From positions 124,001 to 188,000 of the forward strand of contig PXRL01000026.1 in the NCBI GenBank assembly GCA_003020965.1: a DNA stretch of 64,000 nt, read 5' to 3'. A program made the position numbers and the translations under genes. The stretch is from Halobacteriales archaeon QS_4_69_225 (lineage in GTDB: Archaea > Halobacteriota > Halobacteria > Halobacteriales > Haloarculaceae). Each line of letters begins with the position of its first letter. Positions within the stretch are counted from its first letter, which is position 1. Positions 27,673-46,751 of this stretch are shown here, piece after piece. Under the pieces are notes generated by a model. The model made no database searches. It worked only from the letters and a program-made list of their open reading frames with translations, and was not told the origin of the DNA.

Positions 27673-27759
27673 CGCCGGTCGGTCCCCGCGAGTTCGAGAA
27701 CGGGAAAGCTATCGCTGTCGTGGAGCTGTTCGGTCGGCCTCGACCGCGTCGTCGGTCAC

Positions 27760-28057
27760 AGCGGTAACAGTACGGGAGCCCACCCCTTCAGGGATGGGAG
27801 GAAGCGCATAAGCTTGATGTGATTCCGGGACCGAGCAAGCGGGTACGTCCCACAGGCCCAGAAGTGGTCGGTGGGACGGGCTGTCCGTCAGCCAGCCCCG
27901 GAGTCAGGGGACAGCAAACGAGTCCCTCCGACTCCCAACCTGAAAGCCACCTGAGAAAGCCCCGGATTAGAACGTCCGAGGTGTGGGGCTTTCTAGCCGG
28001 GAGCGCGACACTCGGGAGTCCCACTGGCAAGCCCACGAGTTTATTCGTGGGTAGCTG
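27760..28057 (+). mobile_element. mini-element derived from an IS200/IS605 (IS1341/TnpB-type) element, PATE-like, 298 bp
   Basis: Left end TCAC|AGCGGTAACAG..AGCCCACCCCTTCAGGGATGGGAGGAAGCGC and right end CCCACGAGTTTATTCGTGGGTAGCTG match the ends of the intact tnpB element at 44377-45810; no tnpB ORF inside. Confidence 0.8.
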
Positions 28058-28385
28058 ACAGTCGCTCACCGTCCTCCCGAATCTTCCGTACGAACGGGTC
28101 CGACCCCGACTCGAACGTCTCGCTGTTTCGAGCGTGGACCGACAGCGTCAGACCGTACCCGAGACCGATCCGGTAGGCGAGGTCCCGAAAGTCCGCTATC
28201 GGGGTCGATTCCCGCTCGTCGACGACGACGAACAGGTCCACGTCCGAGTCCCGTCCACGAGTTTCACCGCGAGCGGTGCTCCCGAAGAGAAGCACCGTCT
28301 CGACGGTATCGGGATGCGCCGAGCGGACGGCGTCGGCGAAGGCTACGGCGGCATTCCGATGGTCGGTAGCTGCCGTATCGCTCAT
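28041..28385 (-). CDS. nucleotidyltransferase domain protein (MNT-like), C-terminus modified by adjacent mini-element
   Basis: VLLFGSTARGETRGRDSDVDLFVVVD (GS-x10-DxD); last codons SATHE* are encoded by the element right end. Confidence 0.82.
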   Translation of the reverse strand: MSDTAATDHRNAAVAFADAVRSAHPDTVETVLLFGSTARGETRGRDSDVDLFVVVDERESTPIADFRDLAYRIGLGYGLTLSVHARNSETFESGSDPFVRKIREDGERLSATHE

Positions 28386-44142: not shown

Positions 44143-44295
44143 TTACTCGTACTGGGAATCGATGACCTCGTTGACCTCCGCCGACCAGTCCTCGTCGGCG
44201 GCGTCCCTGACGTGCTCCGCCCACCGCCTGACGAACTCGCGTCTCTGTGCGACGTTAGCCCGTTGTTGGTCCCTAAGTTCCTCTAAGTTCGGCAT
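44143..44295 (-). CDS. small protein downstream of DUF6036 gene
   Basis: MPNLEELRDQQRANVAQRREFVRRWAEHVRDAADEDWSAEVNEVIDSQYE; ATG overlaps the 3' end of the interrupted gene. Confidence 0.6.
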   Translation of the reverse strand: MPNLEELRDQQRANVAQRREFVRRWAEHVRDAADEDWSAEVNEVIDSQYE

Positions 44296-44375
44296 ATCGG
44301 TCCGATACCTCCAGTTCCTCGACGTACGTTTCGAGCGTATCGGTATCAAGCTGTTCCCGAAAAACCGTATAGAGG

Positions 44376-45668
44376 TCAGCTACCAACGGCTGAAGCCGTT
44401 GGCTTGTCGGTGGACTCCCGTTCTGCCGACACATACTGGTCGGACGCCACTTCAGTAGCGTTCACGGTCATCACCCCCGACTTTAGGGCATACTGACAGA
44501 ACGCCCCTCCAGCGGGGGACTTCTGCCCTCGCTGGAGTTTTAGTGTAAGTTTCCGAGCAATATTCTTCGCGGCGTTGTAGTCGGCGTTTGCCGTGTACAA
44601 ACAGTCCAGACACTCGAAGTGTTGCCCGTCGCGGTTTTCATCAAGGGTCGTGCCGCACTTCGAGCATTGCTGGCTCGTGTAGGATGGGTCGACCGTTTCC
44701 ACAACGATGCCAGCCAGTTCCGCTTTGTGTTTCGTCTGCTGTTGGAGTTCGCGGAACGCCCACTGCTGGAATTTCTTGCCGTCGCTGATACGGTCACGAA
44801 TCTGCTCCAAGTTCTCGAACGCGATATGCGAACAGTTCTGTCGGTGGGCTTCTTCGACAAGTGCCTTCGAGCATCGGTGCAGATAGTCCTCACTCCAGTG
44901 TCCGAACCTGTCACCGATACGGTGGTAGGTCAGATGGGCGCTTCGCGTCCCCGTCTGTTGGAGGCTGGCACGCCGCTTCTCGAACTCGCGGCGTCTGTGG
45001 TTGAGGAAGTCAGCATTGCCGACGAATCTGCCCGTTGAGGTCACGGCGATATGGTCGTCAACGTTGCAGTCCACGCCAAGCACTCTCGAATGCTCGGCTT
45101 TCTCAGGATGGGCAACGTCGAGTTCCCGTTCCATTGCCGCGTGGAGGTAGAACTCGTCAGTTTCGCTATCGTAGTGAACGGTGCTGGTTGAGAAGGAGTA
45201 GTCGTCGTTCAGTAGGTAGTCGCCGTGTGGCGTGCCGTCCGGGCTGTCGGGCAGGTCGTAGTCGCATTCGACTCTGCCGTTGATTGTGGCGAGACTCACC
45301 TTGTCCCGGTAGTAGGTAGCGGCTCGCTTGTCGTAGACGATACTAAATGTGTCGTACTCGGGCTTGCTGGTGTTCTCGCCGTCAGCAAGCCGATCAACAC
45401 AGTTCCCAATATCATCGGTAGCACGTTTGATGGCTTTCTGGACGAGGTTCGCGTGCAGGCCGTTCGTCTCGTGGCGGAGTTCGTTGTAAATGGCGGCTTC
45501 GGCTTCGCTCTTGCTGGTCACGCAGTCCTCATTGGGATAACGCCATGCCCAGTCTGCTGTGCGATTCGCGCAATACTGGAACAGGTCATTGGTGGCGTGG
45601 AGGTCACTTTTGCGGTCGTCAGGCACGTTGAGTCGCACCCGAACCGTGCGGGTTACGTCCCACGCCAT
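44376..45668 (-). CDS. tnpB: RNA-guided endonuclease TnpB family protein (IS1341-type OrfB)
   Basis: VLGVDCNVDDHIAVTS, IAFENLEQIRDRIS, VETVDPSYTSQQCSKCGTTLDENRDGQHFECLDCLYTANADYNAAKNIARK (RuvC D/E/D plus zinc finger). Confidence 0.95.
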   Translation of the reverse strand: MAWDVTRTVRVRLNVPDDRKSDLHATNDLFQYCANRTADWAWRYPNEDCVTSKSEAEAAIYNELRHETNGLHANLVQKAIKRATDDIGNCVDRLADGENTSKPEYDTFSIVYDKRAATYYRDKVSLATINGRVECDYDLPDSPDGTPHGDYLLNDDYSFSTSTVHYDSETDEFYLHAAMERELDVAHPEKAEHSRVLGVDCNVDDHIAVTSTGRFVGNADFLNHRRREFEKRRASLQQTGTRSAHLTYHRIGDRFGHWSEDYLHRCSKALVEEAHRQNCSHIAFENLEQIRDRISDGKKFQQWAFRELQQQTKHKAELAGIVVETVDPSYTSQQCSKCGTTLDENRDGQHFECLDCLYTANADYNAAKNIARKLTLKLQRGQKSPAGGAFCQYALKSGVMTVNATEVASDQYVSAERESTDKPTASAVGS

Positions 45669-45810
45669 GTAAATCACAGTAACGGCTACTCTTTATTAAT
45701 AGCTTTGATTGCATCGGGGAGTCGGCAATGCAGGTATTGGTGGTTTATGACATAGAGTTCGCGCGCTTCCTCCCACGGCTAAAGCCGTGGGCTTCCGCGC
45801 TGTTACCACT
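44377..45810 (-). mobile_element. intact IS200/IS605-group IS1341-type element (tnpB only), 1434 bp
   Basis: Left end TCAC|AGTGGTAACAGCGCGGAAGCCCACGGCTTTAGCCGTGGG, right end CCAACGGCTTCAGCCGTTGGTAGCTG|A; single tnpB ORF inside. Confidence 0.9.
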
Positions 45811-46269
45811 GTGAGTCCTCGAAGTCCTTCTCGGTTCCCAGGAAGAGCTTGTACGCGATCTGCTGTTCGAGCGGACCGACGTTGACCTCGTGGCCGTCGA
45901 TTCGGGCCAGCGCGGTCGCTCCCCAGTACCCTTCATCCCGGAGCCTGGAAGCGAGGTCCCGGGCTCCTTCGGAGGACAGCGGTTCGATGATGGTGTCGAT
46001 GTCCTCGGTCGACCGCGAGCGCCCGGTCAGTATCGCGACGTATCCGCTCACGACGACGTACCCTACACCGAGGTCGTCCAGTATCGATGTCACGTCGATG
46101 ACGAACTCGTCGAGCAGGGAGAACTCCTTGTCCAGGTGGAGGACCCCATCGTCGAGGCGCATCGAACCCGAATCGGTCGTCCTCACATATAAACTGCCGC
46201 ACAAGTGGAATGTCGCTCTTTTGCCAACCGGCCTCGCACGAGGAGATATGACGGACGACGCCCGCATCC

Positions 46270-46640
46270 GGAGGAACCGCCCGTGAGTCGCGACTACACG
46301 AGATAACTGTCGTCGGCGACGACGACACGGGGCTCATCGCGCGGGTGACGACGCTGTTGTTCGAGCGGGACGTCAACATCGAGGACCTCGGCTAGGGACC
46401 GATCATCGCCCAGCGGGCGTTCGACGCGCCGCCGGGCGCCGACGTCGACCGGTTGCAGCGCCGCGGCCAGCCGCTGGAGGCCGAGGCGCTGTTGGAGGCC
46501 GTCCGGCTCCACCTCGACGACGCCGTCTCCGCTTACCGCGGACGGACGGACCTGCGCGACGGAATCGACGCTGACGACTACCGCCTCGGACTACCGCCCG
46601 ACCTCGACGAGCGGCTGCCGGACCGCCCCATCGACGGCCT
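46270..46640 (+). pseudogene. purU: formyltetrahydrofolate deformylase (PurU) remnant with internal deletion
   Basis: EITVVGDDDTGLIARVTTLLFERDVNIEDLG*GPIIAQRAFDAPPGADVDRLQRRGQPLEAEALLEAVRLHLDDAVSAYRGRTDLR...PDRPIDGLG: N-terminal ACT segment fused to the PurU C-terminus, with a stop at the junction. Confidence 0.82.
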
Positions 46641-46683
46641 CGGGAGGCCGTCTCCGACGACTGAACGCGTCCGACAGCTTTAT

Positions 46684-46699
46684 TTTAGGTCGGCCTAAA
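46684..46699. promoter_or_regulatory. palindrome resembling a DtxR-family (Idr/SirR) metalloregulator operator
   Basis: TTTAGG-TCGG-CCTAAA, 6-bp perfect arms in AT-rich context; no intact gene directly adjacent. Confidence 0.5.
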
Positions 46700-46706
46700 T
46701 AGTGGA

Positions 46707-46751
46707 GCGTGGGACCGGGCCGACCGGCGCGAGCGACCCGCGGTCCCACGC
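46707..46751. repeat. 11-bp inverted repeat
   Basis: GCGTGGGACCG ... CGGTCCCACGC, 23-nt spacer, next to the TTTAGG palindrome. Confidence 0.7.

What the first reader, a model, noticed from the sequence alone, without database searches (positions are those of the whole stretch)
44273..46162. IS1341-type TnpB element interrupts a DUF6036 nucleotidyltransferase gene; precise excision restores the frame
The upstream part ends ...GTEKDFED and the downstream part continues LYTVFREQLDTDTLETYVEELEVSDRYAELRGT*. If the element spans 44377-45810 (after TCAC, ending GTAGCTG) the empty site reads GAG GAC TCA CAC CTC TAT ACG, E-D-S-H-L-Y-T, in frame. This defines boundaries and target (TCAC) and suggests recent insertion in a putative toxin/defence gene that TnpB could re-target.
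Basis: partly seen in the sequence, partly recalled or inferred. Interest (0 to 1): 0.72.

Follow-up and report, generated by a model that had tools for sequence, protein, structure and literature searches.

The report
TnpB insertion in a decayed gene
A common mobile element of salt-loving archaea, carrying a gene for an RNA-guided nuclease (tnpB), sits inside an already damaged nucleotidyltransferase-like gene; its true right end lies two bases further out than first read, so its clean removal would not repair that gene.

Summary
The insertion is real. An IS1341-type element (tnpB, no tnpA) lies on the minus strand inside a weakly DUF6036-like nucleotidyltransferase gene, directly 3' of a TCAC target motif. 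The left end (45810) and TCAC are confirmed. The right end is not: in about 20 relatives (80-90% identical, at unrelated sites in other haloarchaeal genomes) the element runs through ...GTAGCTGAC and only then diverges. The element is 44375-45810 (1436 nt), not 44377-45810. With the correct ends the empty site is GAGGACTCAC|CTCTATACGG, which is frameshifted: precise excision gives ...EDSPLYGFSGTA*, not EDSHLYT. Three syntenic homologues without the element place the junction at GAC GCN CTN CAC|CTN, so five bases beside the left end are missing here. The host gene also lacks 45 codons that are present in a full-length relative, so it is a pseudogene whatever the element does. TnpB looks intact and constrained (catalytic residues present, median dN/dS 0.11). 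Its last ~55 codons overlap a strongly conserved, covarying omega-RNA-like structure. No TnpA was found in this 89%-complete genome. Verdict: a new member of a known kind; the headline claim of frame restoration is rejected.

The parts
44375..45810 (-). IS1341-type element, 1436 nt, corrected ends (left end 45810, right end 44375, ending ...GTAGCTGAC)
   Evidence: Comparison with about 20 copies at unrelated sites: flanks diverge before TCAC and after CTGAC
45811..45814 (-). TCAC target tetranucleotide, presumed TAM of TnpB
   Evidence: Precedes every intact left end of relatives; TCAT in one partial copy
44376..45668 (-). tnpB, 430 aa from the ATG; the stop codon TGA lies inside the terminal TGAC
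   Evidence: Pfam and PDB matches; catalytic motifs kept and median dN/dS 0.11
44375..44540 (-). Putative omega-RNA scaffold overlapping the 3' end of tnpB
   Evidence: Synonymous divergence falls to 0.09-0.17 against 0.47 in the rest of the gene; fold z=-4.8; covarying terminal hairpin
44383..44402 (-). Right-end near-terminal palindrome CCAACGGC-TTCA-GCCGTTGG
   Evidence: compensatory changes across 21 copies
45772..45791 (-). Left-end near-terminal palindrome CCCACGGCTTTAGCCGTGGG
44355..44374 (-). Flank that would serve as the guide, CTCTATACGGTTTTTCGGGA
   Evidence: Position directly 3' of the corrected right end; guide role inferred from characterised TnpB systems; guide length assumed
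45811..46162 (-). 5' part of the interrupted nucleotidyltransferase-like gene; carries a 45-codon internal deletion near 45913 and lacks 5 bases before TCAC
   Evidence: Comparison with syntenic L057, L058 and L059
44273..44374 (-). 3' part of the interrupted gene (LYTVFREQLDT...)
   Evidence: 90% identical to the syntenic copy in G122; aligned at the junction
44143..44295 (-). Intact 50-aa downstream partner ORF (MPNLEELRDQQ...)
   Evidence: Conserved in the four syntenic genomes

Best explanation
This is a non-autonomous IS200/IS605-group element of the IS1341 type that carries only tnpB. It inserted 3' of a TCAC tetranucleotide in a nucleotidyltransferase-like gene, presumably moved by a TnpA supplied in trans. 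It encodes a TnpB that looks functional and an omega-RNA read from the last ~160 nt of tnpB into the flank. TnpB with this guide should cut an empty allele (TCAC followed by CTCTATACGG...) and spare the occupied allele (TGAC before the guide), so that recombination would keep the element in place. The host gene is a pseudogene regardless of the element: it has a 45-codon internal deletion and a 5-base loss at the left junction, so precise excision would leave a frameshift. Shown here: ends, target motif, ORF integrity, conservation and covariation, host-gene defects. Inferred: RNA expression, cutting, TAM function, mobility in trans, and the order of events.
For: Copies in 20 other haloarchaeal genomes share TCAC before the left end and CTGAC at the right end, at unrelated sites. 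A sister copy's empty site rebuilds the GNHD motif only with the corrected ends. Syntenic homologues without the element have CAC|CTC at the junction. TnpB motifs are intact and under purifying selection, and the 3' end shows a second, nucleotide-level constraint with a covarying hairpin and a stable fold. No TnpA in the genome, while 96 of 148 family genomes have one.
Against: No expression, cutting or movement was measured. No TnpA with matching ends was found among 30 TnpA loci, so the mobilising enzyme is unidentified. Rfam's haloarchaeal tnpB-associated RNA families do not match. The terminal hairpin could be conserved as a DNA signal rather than as RNA.
Confidence: 0.88

Rival explanations
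1. One reading: the element ends at GTAGCTG (44377), the AC is host DNA, and precise excision restores an in-frame gene (EDSHLYT).
For: That join is in frame and only one residue shorter than the homologues' EDALHLYT.
Against: All 21 aligned copies carry the AC at unrelated sites. The same rule breaks the GNHD motif at the L105 site. This copy would have to have lost its terminal AC and met an AC in the flank by chance. The 45-codon deletion remains in any case.
Confidence: 0.04
2. Domesticated TnpB: the element is kept for a host regulatory or defence role rather than as a selfish insertion.
For: TnpB is under purifying selection and the genome lacks TnpA.
Against: Copies lie at unrelated sites in different genomes with intact element ends, which fits a mobile element. 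Only one close copy is present in this genome.
Confidence: 0.05
3. The 5-base and 45-codon losses are assembly errors of a draft genome, and the gene is otherwise intact apart from the insertion.
For: The genome is a 28-contig, 89%-complete assembly; reads could not be examined.
Against: Independent large deletions occur at the same locus in G120 and G122, which are 2-contig assemblies. The 45-codon loss keeps the frame, and short-read errors of that size are unusual.
Confidence: 0.07

Closest known systems
IS1341-type elements of haloarchaea (tnpB-only IS605-type transposons; Natronomonas, Haloquadratum; PMC3119063)
   Same: tnpB without tnpA, near-terminal palindromes, short target oligonucleotide, no target duplication, single divergent copies, terminal-only derivatives
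   Different: Nothing fundamental; here the ends and the TCAC motif are set by about 20 independent insertions
ISDra2 TnpB of Deinococcus radiodurans (IS200/IS605; PMC8612924, PMC10097598)
   Same: RuvC catalytic residues and zinc finger, RNA expected from the right end, guide from the flank, TAM equal to the insertion motif; sequence match E=3e-8 to the solved structure
   Different: Distant sequence; different TAM (TCAC here); no TnpA partner; the scaffold overlaps the coding sequence to its last base
Halobacterium sense-overlapping transcripts / omega-RNAs (Rfam RF02656 and RF02657, as cited in PMC12558985)
   Same: Structured RNA region at the 3' end of tnpB in haloarchaea
   Different: No match to any such Rfam family at E up to 1; expression untested here
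PATEs, palindrome-associated transposable elements (PMC3119063)
   Same: Non-coding and terminal-only elements with the same ends occur in this and other genomes
   Different: The element in question is a full-length tnpB-carrying parent type, not a PATE

Membership tests
IS1341-type (tnpB-only IS200/IS605 group) | TnpB with RuvC residues and zinc finger | tested here: met
   Pfam PF07282 E=3e-22; GVD, FENL, ADYN and CxxC motifs kept in 19 copies; PDB TnpB/Cas12f matches
IS1341-type (tnpB-only IS200/IS605 group) | No tnpA within the element | tested here: met
   Element fully read; no Y1_Tnp anywhere in the genome
IS1341-type (tnpB-only IS200/IS605 group) | Near-terminal palindromes and no terminal inverted repeats | tested here: met
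   20-nt palindromes near both ends, in direct orientation
IS1341-type (tnpB-only IS200/IS605 group) | Insertion 3' of a fixed short motif without target duplication | tested here: met
   TCAC before all intact left ends, diverging right flanks; GNHD motif rebuilt at the L105 site
IS1341-type (tnpB-only IS200/IS605 group) | Transposition as single-stranded DNA by a TnpA | not testable with these tools
   Needs an assay; no TnpA in this genome, none with matching ends in 30 loci
RNA-guided TnpB nuclease with omega-RNA | Conserved structured RNA at the 3' end, next to the guide | tested here: met
   Low synonymous divergence, covariation and fold z-score; expression not tested
RNA-guided TnpB nuclease with omega-RNA | TAM-dependent, guide-directed DNA cutting | not testable with these tools
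   TAM inferred from the insertion motif only
DUF6036 nucleotidyltransferase (host gene) | Match to PF19502 above its curated cutoff | tested here: not met
   Full-length homologue from G133 scores 17.6 bits against a cutoff of 23.6 (E=0.0036); window fragment E=0.052
DUF6036 nucleotidyltransferase (host gene) | Toxin or defence function | not tested
   No functional evidence sought or found; a conserved 50-aa partner ORF follows

The most novel reading that the evidence does not exclude
The ~300-nt non-coding elements and ~48-nt terminal-only elements that share these ends (one at 27760-28059 in this window) give guides to this TnpB in trans or are kept in place by it, so that a genome without TnpA maintains a set of elements homed by one RNA-guided nuclease.
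Probability: 0.1. Interest if true: 0.6.

Novelty: new member of a known kind. Interest (0 to 1): 0.3.

Why it matters
The boundaries of haloarchaeal IS1341-type elements are hard to set (PMC3119063). Here about 20 independent insertions fix them, which gives a defined target motif (TCAC), scaffold and guide position for a testable haloarchaeal TnpB. The correction also shows how a two-base boundary error can produce a convincing but false frame-restoration story. The missing TnpA touches the open question of how tnpB-only elements move in haloarchaea.

Tried and rejected
Frame restoration by precise excision: rejected. A TnpA element with the same ends: none in 30 TnpA loci, and a crude phmmer screen of the loci that carry these ends listed no TnpA. 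Rfam match for the omega-RNA: none. Second copy of the host gene in this genome: none. Empty-site search with the joined flanks of L090: the right flank is a conserved gene but the left flank found no relatives, so it was uninformative. Guide target elsewhere in the genus: only 3-mismatch sites. A toxin or defence role of the host gene was neither supported nor excluded.

Full report
What is there. On the minus strand, tnpB (44376-45668, 430 aa from the ATG) lies between two pieces of one gene. Pfam gives Cas12f1-like TNB at E=3e-22 and OrfB_IS605 just below its cutoff. Solved TnpB and Cas12f structures match by sequence, best E=1e-29, with ISDra2 TnpB at 3e-8. The catalytic motifs (GVD, FENL, ADYN) and zinc-finger cysteines are present in the window copy and kept across 19 aligned copies. 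Median dN/dS is 0.11.

Ends and target. A search of 148 genomes of the same family found 19 further copies spanning most or all of the element at 80-90% identity, and one 939-nt partial copy, all at unrelated sites. Plasmid records gave more, in part the same insertions. Where the left end is intact it is preceded by TCAC (TCAT in the partial copy). Every right end in the alignment reads ...CTGAC, after which sequences diverge. The element is therefore 44375-45810. The target TCAC and the terminal TGAC both end in AC, so reading the terminal AC as flank counts it twice in the empty site.

Consequence. With the corrected ends the joined site is GAGGACTCAC|CTCTATACGG and translates to ...FEDSPLYGFSGTA*, a frameshift. 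An independent test is a sister copy (L105; the same insertion as L052 on a Salinibaculum plasmid) inside a metallophosphoesterase gene. Both joins still match the phosphoesterase domain, with a slightly better score for the corrected one (50.6 against 46.4 bits).

Host gene. The syntenic locus in three congeners has no element at this site. Their junction codons are GAC GCN CTN CAC|CTN in two of them (TTG in the third), so the right flank begins exactly where the corrected right end stops, while five bases before TCAC are missing in the window. A single third-position change, giving CTT CAC, would have created TCAC there (inference). The window gene also lacks 45 codons present in the full-length G133 copy, including NFELWFP, which probably holds an active-site carboxylate (inference from nucleotidyltransferase folds). 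G120 has a different large deletion and G122 lacks the N-terminal part, so decay at this locus is recurrent. Whether the losses came before or after the insertion cannot be told. The DUF6036 label is sub-threshold. A 50-aa downstream partner ORF is intact in the window and conserved in the three relatives.

RNA. Mean synonymous divergence is 0.47 in the body of tnpB and falls to 0.09-0.17 in the last ~50 codons. The 166-nt stretch folds with z=-4.8. The terminal hairpin shows 20 double-changed cells against 7.1 expected, and none of 500 shuffles reaches the observed covariation score. The shuffles ignore relatedness, but the slid controls also fall far below. This fits an omega-RNA overlapping the coding sequence, as reported for Halobacterium (PMC12558985), although no Rfam family matches. 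The hairpin could equally be kept as a DNA signal for TnpA.

Mobility. This genome (89% complete) has no Y1 transposase by profile search, while 96 of 148 family genomes do. Genomes with a long copy of the element have TnpA more often (18 of 20 against 78 of 127, Fisher p=0.012). That fits mobilisation in trans but is confounded by completeness and general IS load. None of 30 TnpA loci examined has matching ends. Non-coding ~300-nt and terminal-only ~48-nt derivatives with the same ends occur here and in other genomes, as described for PATEs in Haloquadratum (PMC3119063). The same paper notes the puzzle of IS605-type elements that show strain-specific insertions although tnpA copies are disrupted.

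Re-targeting. In this genome the guide is preceded by TGAC, the element's own end, not TCAC. At the homologous site G120 reads CCAC and G122 reads GCAC, each with three mismatches over 20 bases. No sampled relative offers a good target, so re-targeting would apply only to unseen strains that keep the exact empty allele.

Verdict. The element, its left end and TCAC are right. The right end is off by two bases, and the frame-restoration claim fails. This is an ordinary but well-defined member of a known element type in a decayed gene.

Noticed in passing
window 27760-28059 (+), target TCAC at 27756-27759: A ~300-nt non-coding element with the same ends as the tnpB element (MITE/PATE-like). Two more copies with conserved interiors lie in the same genome, at C7 ~65.3 kb and C12 ~1.2-1.6 kb.
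   Followed up: partly
window about 46270-46720 (+): A gene matching a conserved neighbour in G120, G122 and G133 (resembling purU, formyltetrahydrofolate deformylase; name from memory) has lost about 558 bp internally compared with G122, so it looks like a pseudogene.
   Followed up: partly
window about 45066-45112 (-), inside tnpB: A ~45-nt block just before RuvC-I (PEKAEHSRVLGVDCN) is unusually conserved at synonymous sites across relatives (pS 0.18 for codons 181-200); cause unknown.
   Followed up: partly
L158, L159, L165, L175, L176, L177, L180: Terminal-only elements of about 48 nt (TCAC + left end + one hairpin + TAGCTGAC or a near match), some with a hairpin made of one left arm and one right arm, as expected from deletion between the two palindromes.
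   Followed up: partly
L006/L184 (own genome C15, 49894-51085, -): A terminal-only element is followed about 1.1 kb later by a second right end. The stretch between them holds no TnpB match; its reverse strand may encode a small toxin-antitoxin-like pair.
   Followed up: no
L057 1329-1366 (+), G122: At the syntenic locus in G122 a lone right-end fragment of the same element family lies just downstream of the small partner ORF and replaces its last codons.
   Followed up: partly
own genome: The genome holds some twenty TnpB-like loci of varied subfamilies, several of them fragmentary, and no TnpA. The C12 copy (32.6-34.1 kb) shares the ends of this element although its TnpB is only 48% identical.
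   Followed up: partly
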